Below, piece after piece: positions 23,844 to 30,647 of a stretch of 64,000 nucleotides of DNA. The position numbers and the translations under genes are program-made. Positions within the stretch are counted from its first letter, which is position 1, and every line of letters starts with the position of its first letter. Origin of the DNA: Candidatus Desulfovibrio gallistercoris (lineage in GTDB: Bacteria > Desulfobacterota > Desulfovibrionia > Desulfovibrionales > Desulfovibrionaceae). Where the stretch lies: the NCBI GenBank assembly GCA_019118745.1, contig DWYJ01000041.1, forward strand, positions 19,651-83,650. The letters are read 5' to 3'. Below the pieces are notes generated by a model, which did not search any database, was not told where the DNA came from, and saw nothing but the letters and a program-made list of their open reading frames with translations.

Positions 23844-24010
23844 CGGAAGGGCGGCGTCGGCTTGACAGGCCGTGAGCGCCATAGTAGCCCTTGCCCAGAT
23901 CGTCCGCTGTCGTGCCCGCCGCGCATCCGGCGGCTGAGCCTCTGCGGGAGGCCGTCCGCGCCGTTTCGCGGGGCGGCCCCATCCATCGCTGTGTCTTCGG
24001 AGGAAAAGCC

Positions 24011-24964
24011 ATGTCACGCCCCGCCCCCCTTCTGGCGCTGGTCGTCCCCTGTTATAATGAAGAGGAGATCTTGCCCGGCACCATGACGGCGCTGGCCGAC
24101 GTCCTGAAAGACTGCAAGGCCAGAGGGCTCGTGCGGGAAGACAGCTTCGTCCTCTATGTGGACGACGGCAGCGCCGACGCCACCTGGCGGCTGCTGGAGC
24201 AGCGTCATGCCGTTGACCCCTGTTGCCGGGCCATCCGTTTTGCGGCCAATGCCGGACATCAGAATGCCGTCTGGGCGGGCATGATCACGGCCCGCGACTG
24301 GGGGGTGGACTGCATCATTAGCCTGGACGCGGATCTGCAGGACGATACGGCCGTTATCCCCGACATGTTGACCGAATATGCCGACGGCAGGGACATCGTC
24401 TACGGCGTGCGCTGCGACCGCAGTACGGACACCCGTCTGAAGCGGGATACGGCGCACCTGTTCTATGCCCTCATGGGCTGGCTGAAAACGCCCCTCATCC
24501 CGGATCACGCCGATTACCGGCTGGTGGGACGGGCCGTGCTCGAAGCGCTGGACGCCTTTCCCGAGCGGGACATCTTTTTGCGAGGACTTTTTCCCTCGCT
24601 GGGCTTCAGCACGAGCAGGGTGTACTATACGCGGCGGGAGCGCGCCGCAGGCAAAAGCAAGTATCCTTTCTGGAAGATGGTCTGCTTCGCCTGGAAGGGC
24701 ATAACTTCCTGTAGTCCTGCTCCTCTGCGCCTCTCCGCTTTCATGGGGTCGCTCTGCATGCTGGCGGCGCTTGCCTACAGTTTCGTCTCCCTGTTCAAGT
24801 ATCTGGAAGGCGAGACCATACCCGGCTGGACATCCCTGATCATCGTGGTGCTGTTGCTCGGATCGGTGCAGCTTTTCTGTCTGGCGCTCCTGGGCGAGTA
24901 TGTGGCCAAGATCTTCAGTGAGGTCAAGCGCAGGCCGCGCTATCTGGTGGAAAAGACCTTATGA
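24011..24964 (+). CDS. GT2 glycosyltransferase (GtrB/DPM1-like) with C-terminal TMs
   Basis: LALVVPCYNEEEILP, VDDGSADATW, DADLQDD; two C-terminal TMs. Confidence 0.92.
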   Translation: MSRPAPLLALVVPCYNEEEILPGTMTALADVLKDCKARGLVREDSFVLYVDDGSADATWRLLEQRHAVDPCCRAIRFAANAGHQNAVWAGMITARDWGVDCIISLDADLQDDTAVIPDMLTEYADGRDIVYGVRCDRSTDTRLKRDTAHLFYALMGWLKTPLIPDHADYRLVGRAVLEALDAFPERDIFLRGLFPSLGFSTSRVYYTRRERAAGKSKYPFWKMVCFAWKGITSCSPAPLRLSAFMGSLCMLAALAYSFVSLFKYLEGETIPGWTSLIIVVLLLGSVQLFCLALLGEYVAKIFSEVKRRPRYLVEKTL

Positions 24965-25458
24965 GTCTGATCCGTCCCCTGCTTGCCTGCGGGCGGAAGT
25001 TGACGGCCCTGCGTTGGGTACGCTTCTGCGTGGTGGGCGGGGCCGCCACGCTGTGTTATCTCCTGCTGGGACTGCTGTTCGTCTCGCTCTTGCGCTGGCC
25101 GGTGCTGGTCGGGAACGGACTGGCCTACGTCCTGAGTTTTGCCGTTTCCTACCTTGGGCAGAGCCGCTGGACCTTTGCCGGCAGCTCGCAGGCCGCCAGC
25201 CCCCGGACGCGACTGCCTGCCTTTGCCCTCACCCAGCTTTTCGGTTTGGCGCTCAACTCGGCTCTGATCGGGGCCTTCACGGGGCTGGGGCTGGCCTACG
25301 AACTTGCCATGCCCGTGACGGCCGTGCTGGTGGCTGTGGTCGTCTATGTGTTGTGCCGTTTCGGCGTGTTCCGGCAAAGCGCCGGGGCAGGCGAGGCGGC
25401 GGGTCGTGCGGCATCGGCCGCAGGCAGCGTCCATGCTGAAGGAAGGCGGGAGGGATGA
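24961..25458 (+). CDS. GtrA-family membrane protein
   Basis: RFCVVGGAATLCYLLLGLLFV; LSFAVSYLGQSRWTF; overlaps the GT2 stop. Confidence 0.88.
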   Translation: MSLIRPLLACGRKLTALRWVRFCVVGGAATLCYLLLGLLFVSLLRWPVLVGNGLAYVLSFAVSYLGQSRWTFAGSSQAASPRTRLPAFALTQLFGLALNSALIGAFTGLGLAYELAMPVTAVLVAVVVYVLCRFGVFRQSAGAGEAAGRAASAAGSVHAEGRREG

Positions 25459-25459
25459 C

Positions 25460-26890
25460 ATGACGAAAAAAGGACTTGTCCACTACGGCATACCGCTGCT
25501 GTGCACGCTGTTGTGCGTTGCGGCCTCCCTGGTCGATCTTTGGGCATTTCGGGTGAATGACTGGGATTTCAGCTATTTTTCCGTCCTGCCCTGGAACCTC
25601 GGCAACGGGCAGGGCTGGCATGTGCCCTTCCATGAGCTGGGGGCGGGTTTCCCGTTTTATGCGCATCACTGGCAGCCCTTCGTGCTGGCGCTCGTTCCCT
25701 TCCTGACTTGGTTCGACAGCCCGTACACCCTTTCCGTCCTGCATGCGCTGGCGATGGGAGCCTGGTTCTTCCTGCTGCCGCTTTTCGTCCGTCAGGTCTA
25801 CCGCGAGGCGGGAAGAGAAGACTATCTGGGGGCAGCGCTCTTCTGGCAGCTTGTGCTGTTCGTCTATACGCCTTTCTGGGGGCCGTGGCGTTACCAGACG
25901 CATATAACGACGCTCGTCAGTCCCGCGCTCTTTCTGGCCGTACTGTGCCTGCACCGGCGGCGTGCGGTCTGGGCCTGTTTCTGGTGCCTGCTGGTGGCCT
26001 TTGGTCAGGAGCGCTCTTCTGTCGCCGTCTTTTCCGTCGGGATGTATGCGATCCTCATTTTGCGCCAATACCGGCTGGGGGGCGGGCTCTGCCTGGCTTC
26101 AGGCCTGTATTTCCTGGGTATCGTCAAGGTGCTTTTCCCCTTTCTGCGCGGCGGCGATGCGTACGCCTTTTCCGCCTCCATCAGCCCGTTCCATGATTTT
26201 TTAAAGAAGTGCCTTTTTTTGCTGAAATACCTGGCCTATACGTTTTTCCTGCCCCTGGCGGGGAAGCGCGCCTTCCTGACGGCGGCCTGCAGTCTGCCGG
26301 TCCTGGGCATCGGTCTGGTATCGAGCCGGGAAAGCATGTACGCCTTCGGGCACCACTATCAGGATGTCTCGGCCCCCTTCCTGCTCATGGCCGGGGTGTA
26401 CGGTCTGCTGTGGTTGCAGGAACAGCGTCTGGGGCATCGTCTTTTTTCGTCCCGCAAGCTGCTTGCGGCAGGCTGCGCCGTCCTGCTCATCGTGTCCTTT
26501 GCGCAATGCCGCTTCCTGCATCCGCTGGTGCACCTTGGCTTCGTGGCGACCGATCCCCGGCGGGCCGACTATGCCCGGCTGCATGAGGAGCTCGAACATT
26601 TGCTGCGTATCTCGGAAGGAAAGCCGCTTTTTGTGCAGTCTGGCATAGGGCCGCTGGTCTCATTGCGGACGGAACGGTACAGCCTCGTCGGAGAGGAGGA
26701 TCTGCGGCGGGAGTTCGCCGCCGGGGAGCATGTGGCTATCTCGCCGTTGTGCGGCACATACGCCTTCCCGGACTATGCGTCCCTGCAAAAGGGGCTTGAC
26801 GGCAACGGCACGCTGGAGCTCGTGCAGGATTCCGGCCGTCTGCGCATCTATAAAGGCAGAGCGGACGGCGTCCCCGCTCCCGCCCACTAG
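25460..26890 (+). CDS. Polytopic membrane protein, DUF2079/GT39-like
   Basis: DLWAFRVNDWDFSYF, LGAGFPFYAHHWQPFVLALVPF; many TMs; follows GT2-GtrA. Confidence 0.7.
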   Translation: MTKKGLVHYGIPLLCTLLCVAASLVDLWAFRVNDWDFSYFSVLPWNLGNGQGWHVPFHELGAGFPFYAHHWQPFVLALVPFLTWFDSPYTLSVLHALAMGAWFFLLPLFVRQVYREAGREDYLGAALFWQLVLFVYTPFWGPWRYQTHITTLVSPALFLAVLCLHRRRAVWACFWCLLVAFGQERSSVAVFSVGMYAILILRQYRLGGGLCLASGLYFLGIVKVLFPFLRGGDAYAFSASISPFHDFLKKCLFLLKYLAYTFFLPLAGKRAFLTAACSLPVLGIGLVSSRESMYAFGHHYQDVSAPFLLMAGVYGLLWLQEQRLGHRLFSSRKLLAAGCAVLLIVSFAQCRFLHPLVHLGFVATDPRRADYARLHEELEHLLRISEGKPLFVQSGIGPLVSLRTERYSLVGEEDLRREFAAGEHVAISPLCGTYAFPDYASLQKGLDGNGTLELVQDSGRLRIYKGRADGVPAPAH

Positions 26891-26939
26891 GGCTTGGTAG
26901 CCCCATTCGTTACGTGTTTGAGGGGAAGGGAAATCCCTC

Positions 26940-27085
26940 GCTCTGCTGTCGATGCCCGTAAGGCTCCTGCGTCGCCTAACGGGCACGTCCCTGCGGGCCG
27001 CCATTCGGTCGCGCTCTGCTGTCGATGCCCGTAAGGCTCCTGCGTCGCCTAACGAGCACGGCCCTGCGGTCGCGCTCAGGGCAGC
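26940..27085. repeat. Two tandem 73-bp units of the R2-associated hairpin repeat
   Basis: GCTCTGCTGTCGATGCCCGTAAGGCTCCTGCGTCGCCTAACGGGCACG starts at 26940 and again at 27013. Confidence 0.85.
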
Positions 27086-27867
27086 CAGCGTACGAGCCCC
27101 TTGGGGAAATCCGGGGGGAGCTCGTGCTCTTCGACCTTCCTGGTCTTGAAGCGGACGCGCTTGCCGTGAAGATCGGTATATTCAAGGTATCTGTAACCTT
27201 CCCCCAAGCCCAGGAATGGTTTGTGGAAGCCCGCCCTGAACTTCGGGTGCGGCTGCGCTGAGGAGTCGCCGAGCAGGGGCCTGAGGTCCCTGCCGTCTTT
27301 TTCCGTCATCAGGTATTCCTCATAAATGGGGCCATGCTCACCGGAGAAGGTGACGAAATAATAATTGCCGTACACGCGCCGCCACTGCAGCACATAGCGC
27401 CCCCCTTTCATATTTTGCTGGCCTGCGTAGTAGGCATCCGCGGGCGTGTCCTCGGGAACGCTGAAGGTCGTGCCGTCTTCGAAGCGGACGCGTTGGGGCA
27501 TAAAGCCTCCGTCCGCCTCCATGCCCGTGAAGCTGCGCCGTTCCGGATTGTCGAAGTACGCGATGTCGCGGATCACGACACCTTCAGGATCTGTAAGGTC
27601 GTAGATCGAGATGGCGCCGACCTTGAGTTTGTCCCCTTGCTGGACGCTCATGAGGACATTCTCGTACTCGCCTCCTTTCAGCATGGGGTGGATGCAGGGA
27701 GCGGACGGGTCTGTGGAATGGATATACGGGATGAGCGCCTCGAGGGGCACCCGCGATTCCCTGAAAAGATAATATCTGGCCTCCTGTGCGGGCTCTGCCG
27801 TGCAGGGGCTGGTCAGGAGCAGGATAAGCGCAAACGCAAGGCTAAGGCGTCGCCGAAAAGCGGACAT
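27076..27867 (-). CDS. Secreted protein, tandem paralog 1 (subfamily A)
   Basis: Signal peptide MSAFRRRLSLAFALILLLTSPCTAEP; ends ELPPDFPKGLVRWLP; RBS AGGAGGTCATC. Confidence 0.85.
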   Translation of the reverse strand: MSAFRRRLSLAFALILLLTSPCTAEPAQEARYYLFRESRVPLEALIPYIHSTDPSAPCIHPMLKGGEYENVLMSVQQGDKLKVGAISIYDLTDPEGVVIRDIAYFDNPERRSFTGMEADGGFMPQRVRFEDGTTFSVPEDTPADAYYAGQQNMKGGRYVLQWRRVYGNYYFVTFSGEHGPIYEEYLMTEKDGRDLRPLLGDSSAQPHPKFRAGFHKPFLGLGEGYRYLEYTDLHGKRVRFKTRKVEEHELPPDFPKGLVRWLP

Positions 27868-27913
27868 GATGACCTCCTGTGGAGTGCGGCGTCAGGCTGC
27901 GGCGTCTCCGCGC

Positions 27914-28708
27914 TCAGGGCAGCCAGCGCACGAGTCCCTTGGGGAAATCCGGGGGGAGCTCGTGCTCTTCGACATACCTGACCTTGAAACGGACGCTTTT
28001 GCCGTGAAGATCGGTATACTCAAGATAGCTATAGGCTTCTCCCAATCCCAGGAATGGTTTGTGGACCCCCTCCCTGAACTTCGGATGCGGCTCCGCTGAG
28101 GAGTCGCCGAGCAGGGGCCTGAGATCCCTGCCGTCTTTTTCCGTCATCAGGTATTCCGCATAAATGCGTCCATTACGCTCGCCATACTCGGTAACAAGAT
28201 AATAATTGCCGTACACGCGCCGCCACCGCAGCACATAGCGTCCCCCTTTCATATTTTGCTGGCCTGCGTAGTAGGTATCCGCGGGCGGGTCATCGGGAGC
28301 GTGGAGGGTCGTGCCGTCTTCAAAGCGGACCCTGTGGGGCGCAGCTTTCCCGTCCGCCTCCATGCCCGTGAAACTGCGTCGTTCCGGATTGTCGAGGTAG
28401 GAGATGTTGCTGACTGAGATCCCTTGCGGATCTGTGAGGGAGTAGATCGAGATGGTGGCGATCTTGAGTTTATCCCCTTGCGGGACGCTCATGACGACAT
28501 TCTCGTACTCTCCTCCTTTCAGCATGGGGTGGACGCAGGGAGCGGACGGGTCAGTGGAATGGATATACGGGATGAGCGCCTCGAGGGGCACCCAGGAGTC
28601 CCTGAAAAGATAATATTTGGCCTCCTGTGCGGGCTCTGCCGCACACGGGCTGGTCAGGAGCAGGATGAACGAGAACGCAAGGTTCAGGTGTCGCCGGAAA
28701 GTGGGCAT
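27914..28708 (-). CDS. Secreted protein, tandem paralog 2 (subfamily A)
   Basis: Near-collinear with paralog 1; start MPTFRRHLN. Confidence 0.85.
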   Translation of the reverse strand: MPTFRRHLNLAFSFILLLTSPCAAEPAQEAKYYLFRDSWVPLEALIPYIHSTDPSAPCVHPMLKGGEYENVVMSVPQGDKLKIATISIYSLTDPQGISVSNISYLDNPERRSFTGMEADGKAAPHRVRFEDGTTLHAPDDPPADTYYAGQQNMKGGRYVLRWRRVYGNYYLVTEYGERNGRIYAEYLMTEKDGRDLRPLLGDSSAEPHPKFREGVHKPFLGLGEAYSYLEYTDLHGKSVRFKVRYVEEHELPPDFPKGLVRWLP

Positions 28709-28753
28709 GATGACCTCCTGTGGGTGCTGCATCGGGCTGCGGCGTCTCCGCGC

Positions 28754-29569
28754 TCAGGGCAGCCAGCGCACGAGTCCTTTGGGGAAATCCGGGGGCAGGT
28801 CCTTCTCCTGGACCACCTTGATCTTGTAGCGGATGCGCTTGCCGTCGTGATCGGTAGCGTCAAAATAGGGGGCAAGGTCCGCATCGGACGCGATGCTCTT
28901 GCGGCAGGTCGTGAAGTCAGGATGCGGCTCCGCCGAGGATTCCCCAAGCAGGGGCCTGAGATCCTTGCCGTTTTCCTCTGTGATCAGGTATTCGGCAAGA
29001 ACGACCTCCTGAGAGTATTTGGCGACGAAATAATAATTTCCGTACACGCGCCGCCACTGCAGATGGAAACGCCTCCCGTTTATGACTTTACGACCGTGGG
29101 AATATTCGTCCACTTCGCCCGTGAAGTAGGCGTCCGCCGGCGGGTAAGGGTCGGAAGGGAAAGCGCGGAGTTCCGTGCCGTCTTCGAAGATGACATGGTC
29201 CGGGTCGGCTGTCGGCGATTCTGCCTCCATGCCCGCGAAACTGCGCCGCTCCGGGTTCCTGAGGTACAGGATCTTCGAAACGAAAGGCCCTTCCTTGTCC
29301 GCGATGCATTCCGGCGGGAAGAGGGCGGCCTTGAGGATGTCCCCCTCCTGGACGGTCATGACGATGAACGAGTGGAGACCGGTGCTATGGATGCGGGGAG
29401 CGGACGGGTCGCCGGCACGCAGGTAGGAAGCGAATTTTTCGAGAGAGATGCGGGAATTCAGGTTGATGATGTTGTATTTTGGTCCCTGTGCGGGCTCTGC
29501 CGCGCAGGGGCTGGTCAGGAGCAGGATGAACGAGAACGCAAGGCTCAGGCGTCGCCGGAAAGCGGACAT
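28754..29569 (-). CDS. Secreted protein, tandem paralog 3 (subfamily B)
   Basis: Same signal peptide and C-terminus; B-type core KYNIINLNSRISLEKFASYLRAGDPSAPRIH. Confidence 0.85.
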   Translation of the reverse strand: MSAFRRRLSLAFSFILLLTSPCAAEPAQGPKYNIINLNSRISLEKFASYLRAGDPSAPRIHSTGLHSFIVMTVQEGDILKAALFPPECIADKEGPFVSKILYLRNPERRSFAGMEAESPTADPDHVIFEDGTELRAFPSDPYPPADAYFTGEVDEYSHGRKVINGRRFHLQWRRVYGNYYFVAKYSQEVVLAEYLITEENGKDLRPLLGESSAEPHPDFTTCRKSIASDADLAPYFDATDHDGKRIRYKIKVVQEKDLPPDFPKGLVRWLP

Positions 29570-29611
29570 GATGACCTCCTGTGGGTGCTGCGTCAGGCTG
29601 CGGGGCTGCGC

Positions 29612-30424
29612 TCAGGGCAGCCAGCGCACGAGCCCCTTGGGGAAATCCGGGGGCAGGTCCTTCTCCTGGACCACCTTGATCTTGTAGCGGATGCGCCTGC
29701 CGTCGTGATCGGTAGCGTCAAAATAGGGGGCAAGATCCGCATCGGATGCTACGGTCTTGCGGCAGGTCGTGAAGTCAGGATGCGGCTCCGCCGAGGATTC
29801 CCCAAGCAGGGGCCTGAGATCCTTGCCGTTTTCCTCTGTGATCAGGTATTCCGCAAGCACGAGTTCCCGGGCGTATTTGGTGACGAAATAATAATTTCCG
29901 TACACGCGCCGCCACCGCAGATAGAAACGCGCCTCGGGTATGACGTAAGTGCCGCGGGAATATTTGCCCACTTCGCCTGTGAAATAGGCGTCCGCCGGCG
30001 GGTCGGAGAAAACGTGAAGGGCCGTGTCGCGATCAAAGGTGACGGCGAACGGGGACTGACAGTCATGCGGCGTCGTTTGCGCCATGCCTGTAAAAGTGCG
30101 CCGCTCCGGGTTCTCAAGATACAGGATCTGCGAAACGAAGGGCCCTTCCTTGTCCGCGATGAATTCCGGCGGGATGAGGGCGGCCTTGAGGATATCCCCC
30201 TCCTGGACGGTCATGACGATGAACGAGTAGATGCCGGTGTTATGGATGCGGGGAGCGGACGGGTCGCTGGCACGCAGGTAGGAAGCGAACTTTTCGAGGG
30301 AGAAGCGGGAATTCAGGTTGATGATGTTGTATTTTGGCCCCGGTGCGGGCTCTGCCGCGCAGGGACTGGCCAGGAGCAGGATGAGCGAGAACGCCACGCT
30401 CAGGCGTCGCCGGAAAGCGGACAT
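29612..30424 (-). CDS. Secreted protein, tandem paralog 4 (subfamily B)
   Basis: Close to paralog 3; start MSAFRRRLSVAFSLILLLASPCAAEPAP. Confidence 0.85.
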   Translation of the reverse strand: MSAFRRRLSVAFSLILLLASPCAAEPAPGPKYNIINLNSRFSLEKFASYLRASDPSAPRIHNTGIYSFIVMTVQEGDILKAALIPPEFIADKEGPFVSQILYLENPERRTFTGMAQTTPHDCQSPFAVTFDRDTALHVFSDPPADAYFTGEVGKYSRGTYVIPEARFYLRWRRVYGNYYFVTKYARELVLAEYLITEENGKDLRPLLGESSAEPHPDFTTCRKTVASDADLAPYFDATDHDGRRIRYKIKVVQEKDLPPDFPKGLVRWLP

Positions 30425-30482
30425 GATGACCTCCTGTGATAGGGGCGCGGGATACAGGCTGGGCTCATCCCGACGCCGACAA

Positions 30483-30544
30483 AAACGGCAGCCCTGACGT
30501 CCGGTCAGGCGTGGCAAACGTCAGACCGTCGGCGGGCTGCCGTT
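30483..30544. other. Long structured inverted repeat, possible terminator or small RNA
   Basis: AAACGGCAGCCC ... GGGCTGCCGTTT with an inner hairpin; T-run on the minus-strand exit. Confidence 0.55.
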
Positions 30545-30559
30545 TCTTGCAGCAAGATG

Positions 30560-30647
30560 AAGCGTGTCGTCCGGCAGCGGGTTGTCTTTCTTGGCGGCGC
30601 TGTGCCGCCGCCTCGCGTTTTATCTTTTTCAAAGATAAAACGCCCTA
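30560..30647. repeat. R1 dispersed repeat, partial copy
   Basis: GGCGGCGCTGTGCCGCCGCCTCGCGTTTTATCTTTTTCAAAGATAAAACGCCCTA. Confidence 0.75.

What the first reader, a model, noticed from the sequence alone, without database searches (positions are those of the whole stretch)
27076..30424. Four tandem paralogs of an unrecognised secreted protein family
Four consecutive ~265-aa minus-strand genes with signal peptides, the same AGGAGGTCATC ribosome-binding region, ~45-bp spacers and shared C-terminus (ELPPDFPKGLVRWLP or DLPPDFPKGLVRWLP). They form two pairs: A (27076-27867, 27914-28708) and B (28754-29569, 29612-30424). I recognise no family. They sit between a GT2/GtrA/polytopic operon and a phospholipid-methyltransferase-like gene. 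Local amplification suggests dosage or diversification of a periplasmic or surface role.
Basis: partly seen in the sequence, partly recalled or inferred. Interest (0 to 1): 0.72.

Follow-up and report, generated by a model that had tools for sequence, protein, structure and literature searches.

The report
Four orphan toxin-immunity genes in tandem
Four side-by-side gene copies in a gut Desulfovibrio-type genome belong to an unnamed protein family that, in sister genomes, sits directly behind a type VI secretion toxin gene, so they are most likely spare antidotes that protect the cell from toxins fired by related competitors.

Summary
In detail: four intact minus-strand paralogs at 27076-30424 form two pairs. 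Members of a pair are about 81% identical; the two pairs are about 50% identical to each other. They share the AGGAGGTCATC ribosome-binding region, 42-46 bp spacers and the C-terminus. They match no Pfam, NCBIfam or PADLOC family and no solved fold.

Relatives reveal the likely role. In two other Desulfovibrio genomes, members sit directly behind a TseH-like (PF25218, permuted NlpC/P60) type VI secretion effector, in the order vgrG - DUF4123 - effector - family member(s) - PAAR. These are the only TseH-like genes found in 247 family-level and 79 genus-level genomes. A third genome keeps a member beside TsiV immunity genes and a 96-bp vgrG remnant, as if the effector module had been deleted.

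The window genome has a type VI apparatus gene elsewhere but no detectable TseH-like effector, so the array is best read as orphan periplasmic immunity genes. Low GC, low dS against a sister genome, elevated dN/dS and mosaic divergence point to horizontal exchange, duplication and recombination. Immunity is inferred from gene order and untested. Orphan immunity arrays are known; this protein family is undescribed in the libraries searched.

The parts
27076..27867 (-). copy 1 (pair A), 263 aa, putative orphan periplasmic immunity protein
   Evidence: ORF; 81% identical to copy 2; no exact ortholog in G224
27914..28708 (-). copy 2 (pair A), 264 aa, putative orphan periplasmic immunity protein
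   Evidence: ORF; ortholog in G224, 89% aa identity, dN 0.057, dS 0.091; AlphaFold2 model pLDDT 78
28754..29569 (-). copy 3 (pair B), 271 aa, putative orphan periplasmic immunity protein; middle segment divergent from copy 4
   Evidence: ORF; ends 92-100% and middle 57-66% identical to copy 4
29612..30424 (-). copy 4 (pair B), 270 aa, first gene of the array, putative orphan periplasmic immunity protein
   Evidence: ORF; ortholog in G224, 95% aa identity, dN 0.022, dS 0.103; AlphaFold2 model pLDDT 78
27868..30438 (-). shared ribosome-binding region CACAGGAGGTCATC directly before each of the four starts (27868-27881, 28709-28722, 29570-29583, 30425-30438)
   Evidence: sequence
30470..30560 (-). 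hairpin with T run between the methyltransferase gene and copy 4, likely transcription terminator of the upstream gene
   Evidence: fold -44.3 kcal/mol, z -3.9

Best explanation
The four genes are an orphan array of periplasmic immunity proteins against TseH-like type VI secretion effectors. Shown: members of the same family are encoded directly behind a TseH-like effector in vgrG-effector-PAAR modules of two other genomes of the genus; the window genome has no detectable TseH-like effector; the copies diverge fast and as mosaics. Inferred: each copy is exported by its signal peptide, binds an incoming permuted NlpC/P60 effector in the periplasm and blocks it before it attacks envelope lipids or peptidoglycan. 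Different copies would match different effector variants of competing gut Desulfovibrio. The array would have arisen by acquisition or retention of immunity genes without the effector, followed by tandem duplication and recombination.
For: G212: hcp, vgrG, DUF4123, TseH-like effector, two tandem members, PAAR, then TssF. G244: vgrG, DUF4123, TseH-like effector, member whose start overlaps the effector's end, then PAAR, TssA and TssF. The G244 effector passes Pfam's TseH cut-off (31.3 vs 27 bits), and both effectors keep the GHAG and NCMT motifs of TseH structure 6v98. No other TseH-like gene in 247 family-level or 79 genus-level genomes. G335: member beside TsiV immunity genes (PF11876) with a 96-bp vgrG remnant where the effector module would be. 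TssF in 6 of 7 carriers vs 26 of 72 non-carriers in the genus, p = 0.016. Array orthologs: dS 0.09-0.10 vs 0.31-0.57 in flanking genes, dN/dS 0.21-0.62 vs 0.07-0.25; GC 0.58-0.60 vs 0.66; clustered differences. Literature precedents for orphan immunity arrays and for TseH acting on the envelope.
Against: Only two effector-linked loci are known, and their members are 32-58% identical to window copy 2, so the cognate effector of the window array itself has not been seen. The G212 effector is below the Pfam cut-off. Three diverged single-copy members (G017, G311, G335 contig 182) show no T6SS neighbours. The association test ignores relatedness of the genomes. No functional test exists.
Confidence: 0.78

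Rival explanations
1. The family is T6SS-effector immunity at its origin, but the window array has been taken over for another periplasmic or envelope role, or is decaying without function.
For: No effector in the genome; members at the site are diverged from the effector-linked ones; dN/dS is above that of flanking genes.
Against: All four reading frames are intact with conserved ribosome-binding regions and C-termini; dN/dS is below 1; orthologs are kept in G224.
Confidence: 0.15
2. The family is an accessory part of effector delivery (adaptor or chaperone of TseH-like effectors) and not an antidote.
For: It is encoded inside the vgrG-effector-PAAR module.
Against: It has an export-type N-terminus whereas effector loading happens in the cytoplasm; the module already has a DUF4123 chaperone; copies persist in genomes without the effector.
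Confidence: 0.03
3. The family is an ordinary secreted or surface protein amplified for dosage, and its position beside T6SS effectors is coincidental.
For: Most carriers have members away from T6SS loci; no known family matches.
Against: Two separate effector modules place it in the same slot, a third locus shows it beside TsiV genes and a vgrG remnant, and copies differ strongly in the middle, which dosage does not need.
Confidence: 0.04

Closest known systems
TseH-TsiH effector-immunity pair of Vibrio (PF25218 for the effector; PMC12994826, PMC5361080)
   Same: The effector next to the family members matches the TseH model and keeps its His and Cys motifs; immunity gene directly downstream.
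   Different: The Desulfovibrio effectors are larger (411 and 462 aa) and travel in a vgrG-DUF4123-PAAR module; relation of the immunity proteins to TsiH was not tested.
Orphan immunity gene arrays of Vibrio cholerae T6SS clusters (PMC5361080)
   Same: Immunity genes kept without their effector; the proposed route is displacement or loss of the effector, as the G335 locus suggests.
   Different: The window array holds one family only, lies away from the T6SS cluster and seems to have grown by duplication.
Tandem esaG and tipC immunity genes of type VII secretion (PMC9484751)
   Same: Strings of non-identical paralogs with conserved ends and variable middles, consistent with recombination between copies.
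   Different: Different secretion system, phylum and protein family.
[quoted passage not shown]
   Same: Gut bacteria, divergent and fast-evolving orphan immunity genes.
   Different: No recombinase gene among the immediate neighbours of the window array; single immunity family; different phylum.

Membership tests
T6SS effector immunity family | members encoded directly downstream of a T6SS effector in vgrG/PAAR modules | tested here: met
   G212 and G244. Met for relatives; the window copies themselves have no effector beside them
T6SS effector immunity family | located where the effector acts (periplasm for TseH) | tested here: inconclusive
   signal-peptide-like N-termini by eye; no predictor or experiment
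T6SS effector immunity family | binds and neutralises the cognate effector | not testable with these tools
   needs co-expression and binding assays
Orphan immunity array | immunity homologs in a genome without the matching effector | tested here: met
   no A3 or PF25218 match in G000, a 99.95% complete assembly; an effector too diverged for both models cannot be excluded
TsiH family | sequence similarity to TsiH | not tested
   no TsiH sequence was compared; no immunity family in Pfam matched
TsiV (PF11876) and other Pfam immunity families | match to the family model | tested here: not met
rAID cluster | adjacent tyrosine recombinase gene | tested here: not met
   neighbours are GT2, GtrA and DUF2079 on one side, methyltransferase and FadL on the other

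The most novel reading that the evidence does not exclude
A previously undescribed all-beta immunity family forms polyvalent, recombining arrays that move between gut Desulfovibrio species apart from any effector, and new copies with divergent middle segments widen protection against a diversifying set of TseH-like envelope-attacking effectors.
Probability: 0.4. Interest if true: 0.62.

Novelty: new member of a known kind. Interest (0 to 1): 0.5.

Why it matters
It gives a function hypothesis to an unannotated protein family and suggests that gut sulfate reducers use TseH-like type VI effectors and keep orphan antidotes, as reported for Vibrio and Bacteroidales. The G335 locus looks like an effector deletion that left immunity behind. 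The mosaic array is a compact natural set for testing how immunity specificity evolves.

Tried and rejected
Pfam, NCBIfam and PADLOC searches of the window proteins gave nothing significant. PDB sequence search gave nothing; two AlphaFold2 models (pLDDT 78) gave no PDB fold match better than E 0.009, with TM-scores about 0.2. No related protein was found in plasmids, phages or viral contigs. The only hit outside the family in 396 phylum-level genomes (G355, E 0.004) is in a guanylate kinase reading frame whose WARVHGNYY stretch mimics the RWRRVYGNYY motif; rejected as chance. The neighbouring methyltransferase gene is too rare in relatives to reveal an empty site. Tat export was considered and rejected because the twin arginines are not conserved among relatives.

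Full report
Observation. The four genes are real and at the stated coordinates. Copies 1 and 2 form pair A, copies 3 and 4 pair B. Within a pair the proteins are about 81% identical, between pairs about 50%. Spacers are 42-46 bp, each ending in CACAGGAGGTCATC before the start. A strong hairpin with a T run separates the array from the upstream methyltransferase gene, so the array is probably its own transcription unit; no sigma-70-like site was found upstream of it.

Family. No protein library names it. It is narrow: 7 of 79 genomes of the same genus and one genome of another genus in the same family carry it, and none of 396 phylum-level genomes outside that family does, once one chance match to guanylate kinase is removed. 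The fetched records that bear names are Desulfovibrio assemblies. Two models are mostly beta with moderate confidence and resemble no solved structure.

What relatives show. In G212 two tandem members follow hcp, vgrG, a DUF4123 gene and an effector, and are followed by PAAR, with TssF further on. In G244 the order is vgrG, DUF4123, effector, family member, a small secreted gene, PAAR and TssA, with TssF further on; the effector's end overlaps the family gene's start. The G244 contigs break inside the family gene with an exact 77-bp overlap, typical of an assembler stopping at a repeat, which suggests more than one copy; that the two contigs are neighbours is inferred from this overlap and the gene order. 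The G244 effector matches Pfam TseH above the curated cut-off (31.3 vs 27 bits); the G212 effector matches below it (22.0 bits); the two are 32% identical. Both keep the GHAG and NCMT motifs seen in the solved TseH structure 6v98, although that sequence match alone is weak (E 0.31). Searches of 247 family-level and 79 genus-level genomes find no other such effector.

How an orphan may form. In G335 (L015) the order is TsiV, DUF4123-TsiV, a 96-bp stretch 78% identical to G244 vgrG and readable in the matching frame, a family member 92% identical at DNA level to the 3' part of the G244 member, then the same small secreted gene. This is the G244 order with the vgrG-DUF4123-effector module missing. 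It agrees with the effector-displacement model for Vibrio cholerae arrays (PMC5361080).

The window array. G000 has TssF on another contig and no TseH-like hit. G224 carries orthologs of copies 2 and 4 at the same place, without the GT2-GtrA-DUF2079 operon. Synonymous divergence of these orthologs is 0.09-0.10, against 0.31-0.57 for four flanking genes, and dN/dS is 0.62 and 0.21 against 0.07-0.25. GC is 0.58-0.60 against 0.66 for the window. Copies 3 and 4 are 92-100% identical toward both ends but 57-66% in the middle, and the differences are clustered (permutation p = 5e-4). Clustering is what recombination would give, but selection on the middle segment could also produce it. The tree joins copy 3 with copy 4, copy 1 with copy 2, and the two G212 copies with each other, so tandem duplication probably happened more than once; several branches are long or weakly supported.

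Interpretation. The simplest account is a periplasmic immunity family for TseH-like type VI effectors, present here as an orphan array. TseH has a permuted NlpC/P60 core; it was first called a peptidase, and later showed phospholipase activity in one assay (PMC12994826), so the exact damage that the array prevents is open. Conserved ends with variable middles are known from type VII immunity strings (PMC9484751), and orphan immunity genes protect gut Bacteroidales (PMC12247911). Shown: gene order, distribution, divergence. Inferred: export, binding, protection, breadth.

Limits. Only two effector-linked loci exist in the data, assemblies break at the repeats, the association with TssF (6 of 7 carriers against 26 of 72 others, p = 0.016) ignores relatedness of the genomes, the effector profile rests on two sequences, and no experiment is available.

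Noticed in passing
window 26939-26996 and 27012-27069: Just downstream of the array lie two copies, 73 bp apart, of a palindromic interspersed repeat (core GCCCGTAAGGC..GCCTAACGGGC). The same 43-nt pattern occurs 119 times in the genome within 3 mismatches (66 forward, 53 reverse; reversed control 0), often as pairs about 73 bp apart: a REP/REPIN-like element.
   Followed up: partly
window 28424-30439 (+): A 671-aa open frame runs antisense across the array; most likely a by-product of codon composition in GC-rich DNA.
   Followed up: no
window 23847-27067: The GT2-GtrA-DUF2079 stretch present here is absent at the same place in G224, where the array directly follows the next conserved block, so this is a variable site on both sides.
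   Followed up: partly
L022 9713-9740 and 10530-10545: Both G212 members have a ribosome-binding-like GGAGACACGGCC directly before ATA or ATC rather than ATG/GTG/TTG in front of the signal peptide; the start codon is unclear and might be non-standard.
   Followed up: no
L020 102-6884 and L015 4253-7663: Several tandem TsiV (PF11876) genes, two of them fused to DUF4123-like segments, stand upstream of the family member: a fusion of a T6SS chaperone-like domain with an immunity domain.
   Followed up: no
L019 about 620-1136 and L015 8769-9284: A small secreted protein of about 172 aa with no convincing family match follows the family member in both G244 and G335 (69% identical); possibly a further immunity or envelope gene of the module.
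   Followed up: no
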